Source: Pseudothermotoga elfii DSM 9442 = NBRC 107921
GTDB lineage: Bacteria > Thermotogota > Thermotogae > Thermotogales > DSM-5069
Reading direction: 5' to 3'
NCBI RefSeq assembly: GCF_000504085.1
Contig: NC_022792.1
Span: forward strand, 1,640,001 to 1,704,000
DNA length: 64,000 bases
The notes beneath the pieces are model-generated. The model was not told the DNA's origin, did not search any database, and worked only from the letters and a program-made list of their open reading frames with translations. Position numbers and translations under genes: made by a program. Shown piece after piece: positions 57,970-62,909 of this stretch (its first letter is position 1; each line of letters opens with the position of its first letter).

Positions 57970-59067
57970 GTGAGAATTCTGCACAAAGAAGATCTTGAAG
58001 TAATTGTAAATGGCGCTGCTTTTTTAGGCGCAGGAGGAGGTGGGCCAGTAGGCGTTGGTAGGTACCTTATAGAGAGAATAGAAAAGGAAACTGGTAGCAT
58101 AGAGATAGAGCTAATAACTACCGATGAGATGAGTGATTATGAGTTTGCGGTGATGGTTGCAGGTATAGGGTCGCCAAAAATCATTAAAGAAAAAGGATTT
58201 GGTTGCGAGGCACTTTATGCGTATGAGTTTATAAGGAAAATATGTGCCATATCTGGGATGAAAGTGAAATACGTAATGCCTGGAGAAATGGGAGGATTTA
58301 ATACGCTTGTATCTGTTTACGTTAGTGGAATCACAAAAACTCCTTTAATAGATGCAGATGGCAACGGAAGAGCTGTCCCAGAGTTATCCACCACATTATA
58401 TTATTGTGCAGGCATTCCCTCCGTCCCTTTAGTATTAGCTGATTCATCAGGAGATATAGCTGTGGTATATCTTGGCAATGAAACAGATCATAAAACCGCG
58501 GAAAGTGTAGCAAGAAACATCACAGTGTCGTGGGGTATGGCAGCTGCTTTTTCTACATGGCCAGTACGCAAGCATGAAATCACTAAATATCTAGTTGCTG
58601 GATCAATTAGCCGAGCTAAAAAGATTGGAGAAATCCTCAGAAGATTTGGCGGTAAGTCAATAGAAGAGCTTTCTAAAAAACTATCTATCATGGGTATTAA
58701 GGAACTGTTCGTAGGATGTGTTCGCGATATAAATTCTAAGACCGAAAAAGGATTTGATTGTGGCATTGTCTCAATAGAAGGGAAAGATAAATATAGCGGA
58801 TTAACAATGAATATTTTGTTCAAAAATGAAAACATCTTAGCACAAATTGATGGTAAGCACGTGGCTATGGTACCTGATTTGATAAGTTTTATAGATGCCG
58901 AGACTGGCGAAGTTCTTACTAATGCCGAAATAACAAGTAATCAGAAAATAGTTGTCTATGGAATGCCTGCTCCCAAAAAATGGAAGCAAAAACCTTCTGG
59001 CTTTGAATCCTGGAAACATATTCTGCAAGATTTTGGTTATTCGGGAGAATATTTATCTCTTGATTAG
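57970..59067 (+). CDS. DUF917 (S-methyl thiohydantoin desulfurase-like) protein, paralogue 2
   Basis: 365 residues with the same plan as the paralogue at 49265: NGAAFLGAGGGGPVGVGRYLIERI, GEMGGFNTLVSVYVSGITKTPLIDADGNGRAVPELSTT, and the C-terminal beta domain (MVPDLISFIDAETGEVLTNAEI). The two differ widely, so they are old duplicates or separate subunits rather than a recent copy. GTG 57970 follows AAAGGAG. Last gene of the IclR operon. Confidence 0.85.
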   Translation: MRILHKEDLEVIVNGAAFLGAGGGGPVGVGRYLIERIEKETGSIEIELITTDEMSDYEFAVMVAGIGSPKIIKEKGFGCEALYAYEFIRKICAISGMKVKYVMPGEMGGFNTLVSVYVSGITKTPLIDADGNGRAVPELSTTLYYCAGIPSVPLVLADSSGDIAVVYLGNETDHKTAESVARNITVSWGMAAAFSTWPVRKHEITKYLVAGSISRAKKIGEILRRFGGKSIEELSKKLSIMGIKELFVGCVRDINSKTEKGFDCGIVSIEGKDKYSGLTMNILFKNENILAQIDGKHVAMVPDLISFIDAETGEVLTNAEITSNQKIVVYGMPAPKKWKQKPSGFESWKHILQDFGYSGEYLSLD

Positions 59068-59221
59068 TCATTTTTACTTAGGAGGCAAGAAAATAGTAAG
59101 TAAGTTCGCAATACAAAGTATTGTCAGCGGTTTTTTGAAAACGTGCGCAATTCGGTATTTCCTAACACTTTTAATATTTTCATATCACTTGAATTTTTGT
59201 GATCGTGGTAAACTATGTTAT

Positions 59222-59584
59222 ATGGATTACAAAATCTTTGCCTGGATAAGTGTTGTTTTACTTTTTTACAATTTTTCGCTTTTTCCACTGAGAAAAATCA
59301 TGAGAAATGTTAAGGGGGCCAGAAAATTTCTGAAAATTGGTTCATTGCTGCACAAATATACAGGATTAGCCCTGATTGTAACAGGTTTTATTCACGGTTA
59401 TCTGGCGCTGGGCATTTTTATATTTCATACAGGTTGGATTTTGTGGTTTAGCATAATTTTGCTGTTTGCATATTATTTGTTGAGGAAAGTTTTTAAAAGA
59501 AAATGGATGTATCTTCACAGATACACAGATTTTCTTGTCTTAGGATGGTTTTTTGTCCATTTATTTCTTCCGTGGTTGCTGTGA
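59222..59584 (+). CDS. Small four-helix membrane protein
   Basis: About 120 residues with four hydrophobic segments and histidines in HKYTGLALIVTGFIHGYLAL and WMYLHRYTDFLVLGWFFVHLF. This resembles the haem-binding core of ferric-reductase/cytochrome-b-like proteins. The frame is open further upstream but overlaps the DUF917 gene; ATG 59222 is the first start clear of it, with only a weak GTGGTAA site. Function unknown. Confidence 0.6.
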   Translation: MDYKIFAWISVVLLFYNFSLFPLRKIMRNVKGARKFLKIGSLLHKYTGLALIVTGFIHGYLALGIFIFHTGWILWFSIILLFAYYLLRKVFKRKWMYLHRYTDFLVLGWFFVHLFLPWLL

Positions 59585-59668: not shown

Positions 59669-59697
59669 TTGACATAAAAGTATCTTTATGATATATT
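59669..59697 (+). promoter_or_regulatory. Strong promoter of the second sugar ABC operon
   Basis: TTGACA (59669-59674), exactly 17 bases, then TATATT (59692-59697). Transcription should start near 59704, giving a leader of about 133 bases before the ATG at 59838. Confidence 0.85.
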
Positions 59698-59715
59698 CTT
59701 TTTGAATTAACGCAA

Positions 59716-59781
59716 GGGTATGGGGGGAGATGAGGAGAAGACCGTACCCCTTTGGGGTGTGGTCTTTTAGTTTTTTTTAAG
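59716..59781 (+). promoter_or_regulatory. Leader attenuator: terminator with alternative antiterminator pairing
   Basis: A terminator hairpin (GAAGACC-G-TACCCC, loop TTT, GGGGTG-T-GGTCTTT) spans 59737-59767 and is followed by a run of eight T. Its left arm contains CCGTACCC (59742-59749), which can instead pair with GGGTATGG at 59716-59723, just after the promoter. The two structures exclude each other. Downstream the sugar-transport genes begin. This is the layout of a transcription attenuator or small riboswitch; the signal is unknown. Confidence 0.65.
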
Positions 59782-59837: not shown

Positions 59838-61136
59838 ATGAAGAAATTTTTGGTGATATCTTTGTTAGTTTTAACAGTTTTGTCGTTCGCAAAAGTAAAG
59901 ATTCAATTCTGGCATGCCATGGGTGGCTGGCGAATTGAAGTAATTCAAAACATGGTGAACGATTTCATGAAACTCAATCCTGATATCGAGGTGGAAGTTC
60001 AGTATGTTGGAAGTTACGAAGAAATATTAGCAAAAACAGTTGCTGCTGTACAGGCAGGTACACCACCACACGTGGTTCAATTGAATGAAATAAGCACCCA
60101 AAAAATGATTGATAGCGGTGTCGTAGTTCCTGTTCAAGATATGATTGACAAAGATCCAACTTTCGATGTTGGTCTGTTTCTGCCACAGGTACTTAATTAC
60201 TACCGGGTTAGCGGAAAGCTCTATTCAATGCCATGGAACAGTTCAACACCACTTTTGTATTATAATAAAACGCTTTTCAAAGAAGCTGGACTTGATCCAG
60301 ATAATCCCCCGAGAACTTACAGTGAGTTGATAGAGGCATGCAGAAAGCTTGTTAAAAAAGATGAAAAAGGAAATGTTATCAGAAGTGGTATAACCTGGCC
60401 ACTTTATTCCTGGTTCTTTGAAGAGTATATGGCTCTGCAAAACAAATCACTTGTCGATAACGACAATGGAAGAACGAAAAAAGCAACCAAAGCTACTTTT
60501 AACAATGAAGCGGCCATGAATTTTCTCAACCTGTGGGATAAATTAACAAAAGAAGGATTGATGATCAACACAAAACGCGCCGACTGGACAGCCGCAAGAC
60601 AACTTTTCATATCACAAACGGTAGGAATGCTCATATCTTCAACATCAGATGTCGCACTGCTGATGAATGAATCTGCCAAACAGGGATTTGAACTCGGAAC
60701 AGCATTTTTACCACTTCCAGATGGTGCGCAGCGTGGAGGAGTTATAATAGGTGGAGGAAGCCTGTGGATTATAAAACAAAAAGATCAGCAGGAAATCAAT
60801 GCAGCTTGGAAATTGGTTAAATATTTAGCTGAACCAGGACCTCAAATAACGTGGCATCAGGCAACAGGTTATTTTCCAATAAGAGTGGATGCAATTCAAA
60901 CATTGCAGGTTCAGGGGTATTACAGAGATAATCCACATCATCTGACGGCTATTCTTCAACTTCTAACGAGTGTACAGAATTACAACACAAATGGTGCAAT
61001 AATTGGTGCTTTTCCTGAGGTTAGAGACGCTATTGAAACAGCTGTGGAAAAAATGATATCTGGCTCCATCACACCTAAGCAAGCTCTCGATGAAGCAGAA
61101 AAGAATGCAAACAAAGCTATAAAAGAATATTTTTGA
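59838..61136 (+). CDS. Carbohydrate/glycerol-phosphate ABC transporter binding protein (UgpB-like)
   Basis: 432 residues with signal peptide (FLVISLLVLTVLSFA). IQFWHAMGGWRIEVIQNMVNDF and AGTPPHVVQLNEISTQ, then SMPWNSSTPLLYYNKTLFKEAGLDPDNPPRTYSE, match the family-1 UgpB branch that binds sn-glycerol-3-phosphate or oligosaccharides. ATG 59838 follows AAGGAGGTG. Two permeases follow and there is no ATPase. Expression probably depends on the leader attenuator. Confidence 0.92.
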   Translation: MKKFLVISLLVLTVLSFAKVKIQFWHAMGGWRIEVIQNMVNDFMKLNPDIEVEVQYVGSYEEILAKTVAAVQAGTPPHVVQLNEISTQKMIDSGVVVPVQDMIDKDPTFDVGLFLPQVLNYYRVSGKLYSMPWNSSTPLLYYNKTLFKEAGLDPDNPPRTYSELIEACRKLVKKDEKGNVIRSGITWPLYSWFFEEYMALQNKSLVDNDNGRTKKATKATFNNEAAMNFLNLWDKLTKEGLMINTKRADWTAARQLFISQTVGMLISSTSDVALLMNESAKQGFELGTAFLPLPDGAQRGGVIIGGGSLWIIKQKDQQEINAAWKLVKYLAEPGPQITWHQATGYFPIRVDAIQTLQVQGYYRDNPHHLTAILQLLTSVQNYNTNGAIIGAFPEVRDAIETAVEKMISGSITPKQALDEAEKNANKAIKEYF

Positions 61137-61141
61137 TAAAT

Positions 61142-61172
61142 GCGGCTGGCTCTGCCCAGCCGCTATGTTTTT
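61142..61172 (+). terminator. Intercistronic hairpin after the binding-protein gene
   Basis: GCGGCTGG (61142-61149) pairs with CCAGCCGC (61156-61163), followed by TATGTTTTTC. It lies between binding protein and permease genes, as in the two other importers of this window. Confidence 0.8.
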
Positions 61173-61187
61173 CATGGAGGTGCTCGC

Positions 61188-62057
61188 GTGAAAAGAAAAT
61201 GGCTGCCGTATATTTTTTTAATTCCAACCTACGTTATCATCGTCCTGTTCATATATATCCCTGCTGCTGATTCATTTTACTCGAGTTTTATGAAAATATC
61301 TGTATTTGGAAACAGAAAAATGTTTGTTGGATTGCAAAATTACCTAAATCTTTTTCAGGACCCTGATTATATTTTGGCGGTAAGATTCACTTTAATATAC
61401 ACCGCTGCTACTGTTCTGGTATCTATTTTTTTATCGTTCTTTTTTGCGTTGTTGTTAGATCAAAAAGTTCCTGGCTCGAGAATATACAGAACACTTATTT
61501 TTGCACCATACGCTGTTTCACATGCTGTTGCAGGAGCCCTCTGGGGTTTTCTGTTGAATTCTGTGGTTGGGCATGTCAATTACCTGACAAGAACACTGTT
61601 TGGAATACAGGCCCAATGGTTAACAACCAAACCATTCGCTGCATATTCATTGATAATAGCTTCCATCTGGAAAACATTACCGTTCAACATTATTTTCTAC
61701 TTAGCAGCACTTCAAAATATTTCGTCCGAGGTAATTGAAGCCAGCATAATCGATGGTACAAATTCCTGGACGAGAACCTGGAAGATTATATTTCCGCTTG
61801 TTTCGCCGATAACTTTCTATCTTGTCATCATGAGCATAATATCTTCTATGTTTCAATCTTTCGCAATCATAGATGTGATGACAAAAGGTGGTCCAGGTGG
61901 TTATACAACCAATATGATATACAAGCTCTTCATGGATGGATTCAGATTTCAGAAAACTGGCTTAGCTTCTGCAGAAAATGTCATACTCTTTTTTATAATG
62001 ATCGTGGTAACGGTGATTTATTTTTCTGCCGCGCAGAAGAGAGTTCATTACCAATAG
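61188..62057 (+). CDS. Sugar ABC transporter permease, UgpA/MalF-like
   Basis: 289 residues, six membrane helices; EVIEASIIDGTNSWTRTWKIIFPLV is the EAA docking loop. I take GTG 61188, six bases after TGGAGGTG. The upstream frame to 61140 would read through the hairpin. It pairs with the following permease. Confidence 0.93.
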   Translation: MKRKWLPYIFLIPTYVIIVLFIYIPAADSFYSSFMKISVFGNRKMFVGLQNYLNLFQDPDYILAVRFTLIYTAATVLVSIFLSFFFALLLDQKVPGSRIYRTLIFAPYAVSHAVAGALWGFLLNSVVGHVNYLTRTLFGIQAQWLTTKPFAAYSLIIASIWKTLPFNIIFYLAALQNISSEVIEASIIDGTNSWTRTWKIIFPLVSPITFYLVIMSIISSMFQSFAIIDVMTKGGPGGYTTNMIYKLFMDGFRFQKTGLASAENVILFFIMIVVTVIYFSAAQKRVHYQ

Positions 62058-62069
62058 AGGTGAAATGTG

Positions 62070-62909
62070 ATGAGAAAATCAACCAGAAAAACTATAAAAG
62101 TTGTGACAACTGAGATATTTCTGATAATAGCAAGCATTTTTATGTTTGCACCTGTTTTTCTGGCAATTGTTATGAGCATTCAACCACCAGAATTTGTCTT
62201 TTCTTATCCTCCCAAATTTCTCCCACAAGGATTTTTCACCAAAAATTATCTCGATGCTTTCAAAATAGTTCCATTTGCAAGAATGATGCTGAATAGTGCA
62301 ATAATAGCTGTTTTGATTACCTTTGGAAAATTGATCAGCGGTACACTTTCAGGTTATGCATACGCAAACTTTCAATTTAGGGGAAGCAGGATTTCTTTTT
62401 ACATACTTTTTGCGACACTCTTTATACCTTCTGAAATAGTCTTGATAGTTCCCCTTTTTAAAATAGTCAGTAAATTCGGCTGGACAAACACATATATGGC
62501 CATGACAATACCATTTATGGCAAGTGCAACGAACACTTTCCTGATGCAACAGCATTTCAAAACTATTCCGAGAGAATTTGAAGATGCAGCAAAAATTGAT
62601 GGAGCAGGTTCAATGCAGTATTTTTTCAGGATCGTACTTCCTCTTTCAAGACCTATTATAGCTGGAGCAGCGATAATAAATTTCACATACGCATGGAATA
62701 TGTACCTTTGGCCATTGATAGTGGCGATGGAAGATAAAATGAAAACAGTTCAAGTTGCCATAAACATGATCATAAACGCGGAATCTTCCAACAACTGGGG
62801 AATAATAATGGCCGGGACAGTGATTGCTCTGGCACCGACACTTTTGCTGTTTTTCACACTTCAGGATTTGTTTGTAAAATCACTTGTAAGTACCGGAATA
62901 AAGGGATGA
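62070..62909 (+). CDS. Sugar ABC transporter permease, UgpE/MalG-like
   Basis: 279 residues, six membrane helices, with the EAA loop REFEDAAKIDGAGSMQYFFRIVLPL. ATG 62070 lies five bases after GAGGTGAA; GTG 62067 is an alternative. Last gene of the operon; again no ATPase gene is present. It converges on the YdcF-like gene with one base between stops. Confidence 0.93.
   Translation: MRKSTRKTIKVVTTEIFLIIASIFMFAPVFLAIVMSIQPPEFVFSYPPKFLPQGFFTKNYLDAFKIVPFARMMLNSAIIAVLITFGKLISGTLSGYAYANFQFRGSRISFYILFATLFIPSEIVLIVPLFKIVSKFGWTNTYMAMTIPFMASATNTFLMQQHFKTIPREFEDAAKIDGAGSMQYFFRIVLPLSRPIIAGAAIINFTYAWNMYLWPLIVAMEDKMKTVQVAINMIINAESSNNWGIIMAGTVIALAPTLLLFFTLQDLFVKSLVSTGIKG

What the first reader, a model, noticed from the sequence alone, without database searches (positions are those of the whole stretch)
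59669..59781. Terminator/antiterminator leader controls a sugar-transport operon
A near-consensus promoter is followed within 35 bases by a terminator with eight T, and only then by the operon. The terminator left arm can pair instead with GGGTATGG close to the transcript start. This is the minimum plan of a riboswitch or protein-controlled attenuator, and the leader is too small for known sugar-sensing classes that I can recognise (glmS, T-box).
Basis: partly seen in the sequence, partly recalled or inferred. Interest (0 to 1): 0.6.

Follow-up and report, generated by a model that had tools for sequence, protein, structure and literature searches.

The report
GlpP-controlled glycerol-phosphate transport leader RNA
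A short RNA at the start of a bacterial transport operon carries the same signal that, in Bacillus, lets the glycerol-sensing protein GlpP override a built-in stop signal, so this operon very probably turns on when glycerol phosphate is available.

Summary
TTGACA-17-TATATT is followed by a terminator whose left arm can pair instead with GGGTATGG. It is a conserved regulatory RNA: P1 5' arm - RGAGA - short spacer - RGAGA - P1 3' arm (also the terminator's left arm) - terminator - T-run. A model from six copies matched 61 of 103 class genomes at E<=0.05, 52 at E<=0.001. Of 76 sense matches at E<=0.001, 72 precede glycerol/G3P-linked genes. The antiterminator gene glpP lies between the other two copies in this genome. 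The same boxes and hairpin precede glpFK and glpD in a B. subtilis relative; published B. subtilis work shows GlpP/G3P-dependent antitermination of those genes. So this is very probably a GlpP-controlled attenuator; GlpP binding here is inferred, not shown. The operon is UgpB-like, not a general sugar importer: eight of nine reported ligand residues are kept, and Leu replaces the Trp whose change to Leu goes with glycerophosphocholine binding in M. tuberculosis. The element is not in Rfam 15. [quoted passage not shown]

The parts
59669..59697 (+). promoter TTGACA-17-TATATT
   Evidence: 10-11 of 12 consensus also in the three other same-genus leaders L006-L008
59716..59723 (+). P1 5' arm GGGTATGG of the antiterminator hairpin
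   Evidence: 8 of 8 pairs with 59742-59749; covariation in relatives
59726..59730 (+). box 1, GGAGA
   Evidence: conserved RGAGN in the 72 non-redundant elements, which were found by a pattern that requires it; GAG core invariant in 48 aligned
59734..59738 (+). box 2, GGAGA
   Evidence: GAGA invariant in 48 of 48 aligned elements; the scan required it, but it was seen first in the unselected orthologous leaders
59742..59749 (+). P1 3' arm CCGTACCC, shared with the terminator's left arm
59740..59778 (+). intrinsic terminator: arms 59740-59750 and 59754-59764, T-rich tail 59765-59778
59838..61136 (+). UgpB-like solute-binding protein, 432 aa
   Evidence: SBP_bac_1; PDB 4aq4 UgpB E 1.9e-60; NCBIfam UgpB 255.6 bits, under the cut-off of 411
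61140..62057 (+). UgpA-like permease (start codon may lie further in)
   Evidence: BPD_transp_1; NCBIfam UgpA 207.9 bits, cut-off 335
62067..62909 (+). UgpE-like permease
   Evidence: BPD_transp_1; NCBIfam UgpE 189.6 bits, cut-off 297

Best explanation
The leader is a GlpP-controlled transcription attenuator. By default RNA polymerase starts near 59704 and stops at the terminator after about 70 nt. When glycerol or its phosphates are used, cytoplasmic G3P binds GlpP, and GlpP binds the two RGAGA boxes presented in the loop of the P1 hairpin. P1 uses up the left arm of the terminator, so transcription runs on into the UgpBAE-like operon. Shown here: promoter, terminator, competing pairing with covariation, boxes shared with Bacillota glp leaders, regulon membership, glpP in the genome. 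From published B. subtilis work: GlpP with G3P antiterminates these genes. Inferred: that GlpP of this genome binds this RNA, that the boxes are its contacts, and that it acts by holding P1.
For: Conserved plan in orthologous leaders. R1 model in 61 of 103 class genomes at E<=0.05, 52 at E<=0.001; 72 of 76 sense matches at E<=0.001 precede glycerol/G3P-linked genes (5 of the 72 classed by eye). glpP lies in the own glp cluster between two copies. Element genomes have GlpP in 59 of 61, others in 20 of 42. The window operon's orthologues carry the element in 18 of 23 GlpP-positive genomes with a readable leader and 0 of 6 GlpP-lacking ones. Same boxes and hairpin in Bacillota glpP loci: 36 sites in 76 loci, 1 on reversed sequence, 0-7 for five decoy motifs, incl. 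B. spizizenii glpFK and glpD. P1 covaries in both phyla. B. subtilis: GlpP with G3P prevents termination at glpD/glpFK, and induction is lost without glpP (PMC9604022 and PMC7430163, passages).
Against: No experiment on this organism. P1 is short or missing in family f2 and L010, so the competing helix is not universal. 9 of 79 GlpP genomes showed no element in any search, and 5 of 23 GlpP-positive genomes lack it before this operon. A P1-only model from Thermotogota does not find Bacillus glp leaders above noise. One strong copy lies in a genome without detected GlpP (G004, 71% complete).
Confidence: 0.87

Rival explanations
1. A small riboswitch: the RNA itself binds G3P, glycerol or a related metabolite in the RGAGA loop and no protein is needed.
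For: Compact conserved loop with a covarying closing stem and an expression platform; one strong copy in a genome without detected GlpP (G004).
Against: Tight co-occurrence with GlpP; the same element stands before B. subtilis-group genes whose induction needs glpP; no Rfam riboswitch matches; the conserved core is about 13 nt of unpaired purines.
Confidence: 0.05
2. Another RNA-binding regulator (for example a CsrA-like protein, since the boxes hold GGA) controls the leader, and glpP linkage reflects only shared glycerol genes.
For: GGA-type boxes in a hairpin loop resemble CsrA sites (recalled; not tested).
Against: The element follows GlpP presence even before one and the same transporter gene; in Bacillus the same leaders depend on GlpP (PMC9604022 passages).
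Confidence: 0.05
3. The terminator only ends upstream transcription or is constitutive; the alternative pairing is chance.
For: The terminator is strong and follows genes on the same strand.
Against: A conserved promoter lies between the upstream gene and the terminator in all 4 genus members checked; the alternative pairing covaries; the leader class is confined to glycerol-linked genes.
Confidence: 0.02
4. A leader peptide (ATG at 59730, frame MRRRPYPFGVWSFSFF) controls the terminator by ribosome stalling.
For: The frame is open in the window sequence.
Against: The ATG is absent in the other three same-genus leaders, and the frame starts without a spaced ribosome site.
Confidence: 0.01

Closest known systems
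GlpP/G3P antitermination leaders of Bacillus subtilis (glpD, glpFK, glpTQ)
   Same: Strong promoter, short leader with intrinsic terminator, RGAGA-spacer-RGAGA loop, P1 that shares the terminator's left arm, glp genes behind, glpP nearby; seen in the B. spizizenii glpFK and glpD leaders. GlpP dependence is published for B. subtilis (PMC9604022, PMC7430163, passages).
   Different: Phylum Thermotogota; here it governs a UgpBAE-like ABC importer and, in relatives, a GlpA-like dehydrogenase and a membrane hydrolase. P1 arm sequences differ. GlpP action is not shown here. glpTQ leader was not looked at.
UgpB/UgpBAEC glycerol-phosphate ABC importers
   Same: Nearest solved relative 4aq4; eight of nine ligand residues reported for Phaeobacter UgpB identical.
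   Different: The Trp188 equivalent is Leu, as in the glycerophosphocholine-binding M. tuberculosis protein (PMC7034087, passage); all three proteins score under the NCBIfam equivalog cut-offs; no ATPase gene in the operon.
LicT/SacY (BglG-type) antitermination
   Same: Protein-stabilised antiterminator hairpin overlapping the terminator's left arm (works like it; recalled, and PMC7430163 passage).
   Different: Other regulator family; box loop instead of two bulges; genes and linked regulator are GlpP-type.

Membership tests
GlpP-dependent antitermination leader | intrinsic terminator between promoter and first gene | tested here: met
GlpP-dependent antitermination leader | sequence element shared with the Bacillus glpD/glpFK leaders | tested here: met
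   boxes + hairpin at L189 glpFK and glpD; 36 sites in 76 Bacillota-type loci against 1 on reversed sequence. The R2 covariance model did not retrieve them.
GlpP-dependent antitermination leader | GlpP encoded in the genome | tested here: met
   PF04309, E 2.5e-62, G000:C1:1150405-1150923
GlpP-dependent antitermination leader | controls glycerol/G3P uptake or use | tested here: met
   UgpBAE-like operon; other copies before glpA-like and hydrolase-glpK-glpP
GlpP-dependent antitermination leader | G3P-dependent GlpP binding and read-through | not testable with these tools
   needs biochemistry or genetics
known riboswitch or other Rfam class | match to a covariance model at gathering score | tested here: not met
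   (11 matches at E<=10, all under gathering score); the B. spizizenii locus L189 has none either
UgpB (NCBIfam equivalog) | score over the curated cut-off | tested here: not met
   255.6 bits against 411
UgpB-type glycerol-phosphate binder | nine ligand residues reported for Phaeobacter UgpB | tested here: inconclusive
   8 of 9 identical; Trp188 is Leu (24 of 30 orthologues Leu, never Trp). Positions mapped by hand from the alignment with residue numbers, counted over orthologues

The most novel reading that the evidence does not exclude
The RGAGA-spacer-RGAGA loop is an autonomous small sensor RNA: it binds G3P or a glycerophosphodiester itself, and GlpP is a later-recruited stabiliser. This would also account for leaders that keep the boxes but have little or no P1.
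Probability: 0.04. Interest if true: 0.85.

Novelty: new member of a known kind. Interest (0 to 1): 0.5.

Why it matters
GlpP antitermination is a classic Bacillus mechanism, but the RNA that GlpP reads is not in Rfam, and the Thermotoga GlpP regulon was left unstudied in the 2013 reconstruction. The element found here gives one compact signature shared by two phyla, a class-wide list of controlled genes, and natural variants with and without the competing helix. That makes GlpP-RNA recognition directly testable. It also predicts glycerol-phosphate control, and a glycerophosphodiester-type substrate, for a transporter that reads as a generic sugar importer.

Tried and rejected
Rfam at low threshold: 11 weak matches, all under gathering score, PreQ1 on the wrong strand; rejected. 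Leader peptide: rejected, ATG not conserved. First box patterns on the own genome gave no excess over the reversed-pattern control (18 against 17) or too few to judge (4 against 3; two of the four are elements); replaced by covariance models. R2 (P1 hairpin only) in 8 Bacillota genomes: 35 weak matches, best E 0.097, none at the B. spizizenii glp locus by its coordinates; no use as a cross-phylum test. Of five R1 matches with E 0.001-0.05 inspected, three were chance (G062, G045, G041) and two real (G024, G093). CsrA, TRAP and HutP were considered from recall and dropped because the genes and glpP linkage point elsewhere; none was tested by search. A count of boxes upstream of glp-like frames in Bacillota used loose frame labels and no hairpin test and is not used as evidence.

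Full report
OBSERVATION. The promoter, terminator and alternative pairing exist as described. The terminator's left arm pairs 8 of 8 with GGGTATGG at 59716-59723. Folded alone, the RNA up to the end of the left arm forms this alternative hairpin (-12.6 kcal/mol, 94% of the ensemble); the terminator hairpin is stronger (-17.4 kcal/mol). Between the two arms of the alternative hairpin lies GGAGA TGA GGAGA.

CONSERVATION. The 432-aa solute-binding protein was searched in 61 genomes, and the 30 best fetched loci were read upstream. Many leaders share the order P1 5' arm - RGAGA - short spacer - RGAGA - P1 3' arm, which doubles as the terminator's left arm - terminator - T-run. P1 changes in step: GGGTTG/CAACCC, GGTGC/GCACC, GTGGC/GCCAC, TATGTGAC/GTCACATA (pairs read by eye). 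A second copy in the same genome lies before an alpha/beta hydrolase gene.

REGULON. A covariance model R1 built on six copies (terminator as structure) matched 61 of 103 class genomes at E<=0.05 and 52 at E<=0.001. Of 77 places at E<=0.001 one is the antisense of another. Of the other 76, 52 precede a GlpA-like FAD-dependent dehydrogenase, 6 glycerol kinase, 6 the UgpB-like protein and 8 the membrane hydrolase; 1 runs off its contig, 1 precedes a PiT-like phosphate transporter, 1 a RuvB-like frame (both labels by eye) and 1 has no frame (5 of the 72 were classed by eye because the script's pattern missed them). In the own genome the two further copies head glpA-like - oxidoreductase - DUF1667 and hydrolase - glpK - glpP, facing each other. 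NCBIfam calls the kinase GlpK over its cut-off; the GlpA-like protein is under all NCBIfam cut-offs, best matches type 2 G3P oxidase and GlpA. In some family f1 genomes the hydrolase copy stands alone rather than before glpK (G005, G007, G008, G009).

GLPP. PF04309 is over its cut-off in 79 of 103 class genomes and rings in the B. subtilis and T. maritima controls. 59 of 61 element genomes have it, against 20 of 42 without an R1 match (related genomes are not independent). The two exceptions are G004 (71% complete) and G041, a chance match. Of the 20 GlpP genomes without an R1 match, looser searches and a box scan showed an element in 11; 9 remain without. Conversely three of five weaker R1 matches inspected were chance, so the 59 is somewhat high. 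Orthologues of the window operon: 18 of 23 GlpP-positive genomes with a readable leader carry boxes and hairpin, 0 of 6 GlpP-lacking ones. One of those six, L026, has a box-like match in coding sequence without a hairpin; L015 had only 38 readable bases and is left out; L021's hairpin was judged by eye; G040, whose PF04309 match is under the cut-off, is counted as lacking.

BACILLOTA. A GlpP alignment of six proteins found 80 loci in genome contigs, among them Bacillus spizizenii. Boxes + hairpin + T-run with a frame behind occurred 37 times in 34 of 80 loci, 4 of them in Thermotogota, with 1 in shuffles. On the 76 other loci: 36 sites, 1 on reversed sequence, 0-7 for five decoy motifs. The listed sites lie before glpF, glpK, glpD, GlpA-like or glpP genes by eye from the translations; for three (L175, L189, L193) the script's frame was an alternative one (L189 checked as glpF). 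These loci were chosen around glpP, so nearness to glp genes is expected; the contrast with the decoys is the evidence. The B. spizizenii glpD leader reads GGTC-CTGAGATGAGGAGA-GACC, then the terminator; the scan missed it and it was added by hand. In B. subtilis, GlpP with G3P activates these genes by preventing termination directly after the promoter, and induction is lost without glpP (PMC9604022 and PMC7430163, passages). The primary papers on glpD leader binding were seen only as titles in reference lists.

COVARIATION. Thermotogota set A5: 48 of 72 elements; the 24 left out were near-duplicates and those with short or no P1, so this tests P1 where it exists, not how common it is. All 8 pairs change on both sides; score 0.309 against 0.178 shuffled (0/500) and at most 0.216 slid. 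Bacillota set A7: 30 of 34 (four near-duplicates left out): 0.342 against 0.187 (0/500), at most 0.203 slid; 56% of cells paired. Across all 72 without that selection, own arms pair over 5.4 bases on average against 4.3 for arms of different elements; 48 of 72 reach 5 pairs against 39% of cross pairs. The 72 come from a scan that gave 86 hits; 14 were dropped as second registers or hits in or near coding sequence. P1 is short or missing in L010 and in family f2 (L016-L019, L110, L113).

TRANSPORTER. Best solved relative UgpB 4aq4 (E 1.9e-60), next sugar binder 2.2e-26. Of nine ligand residues in Phaeobacter UgpB (PMC12718374, passages), eight are identical in the window protein. Six positions are invariant in 30 of 30 orthologues, Arg393 in 29 of 30 (one gap), Glu88 is E in 20 and D in 10; Trp188 is Leu in 24, Phe in 3, Thr in 3 (positions placed by hand from the alignment). 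A review says that the Trp needed for G3P binding in E. coli is Leu205 in M. tuberculosis UgpB, which binds glycerophosphocholine and not G3P (PMC7034087, passage). So a glycerophosphodiester is my best guess for the substrate. Once inside it would have to be cleaved to G3P to signal; no such enzyme was looked for.

MECHANISM. During transcription P1 can form before the terminator's right arm exists (inference). Without GlpP the stronger terminator displaces it. With G3P, GlpP binds the two boxes in the loop and holds P1, so polymerase passes. Leaders without P1 suggest that box binding next to the terminator arm can suffice.

NOVELTY. The mechanism is known. The element is not in Rfam 15, here or in the Bacillus locus. 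[quoted passage not shown] its table lists GlpABC and GlpF as glycerol transporters, and whether GlpABC is the counterpart of this operon was not checked. Text searches with GlpP, Thermotoga, antitermination, leader, motif and regulon terms showed in their listings no paper describing this regulon. Subscription journals are mostly not held, and the B. subtilis papers may already show the box sequence as the GlpP site.

Noticed in passing
L075:6157-7959 (own genome about 1152456-1154258, minus strand): A ~600-aa protein with an N-terminal alpha/beta hydrolase (esterase-like) part and a long hydrophobic C-terminal part is under the same leader, before glpK-glpP here and alone in other f1 genomes; a possible source of glycerol from esters (guess).
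   Followed up: partly
L075:1-866: CRISPR-like direct repeats (GTTTCAATCGAACCTTAGAGGGATGGAAAC with spacers of similar length), and a second set in another orientation, stand next to the own-genome glp cluster; two neighbouring spacers look identical.
   Followed up: no
L086 (G084:C24:63975-64050, minus strand): A copy of the element about 220 bases before a PiT-like phosphate transporter frame, a possible extension of the regulon to phosphate release or uptake.
   Followed up: no
L082, L083, L085, L095, L097 (family f9 and genus g6 of f3): In these leaders the terminator loop is long and holds an inner inverted repeat, unlike the 3-6 nt loops of family f1.
   Followed up: no
G021, G023, G017, G019, G027 (family f2): Two PF04309 proteins per genome, a long form beside the glpA element and a shorter, divergent form a few kb away; their division of labour is unknown.
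   Followed up: no
window 58952-59584: A hydrophobic 210-aa frame just upstream has no Pfam or NCBIfam match; it overlaps the end of the preceding gene, so its true start may be later.
   Followed up: no
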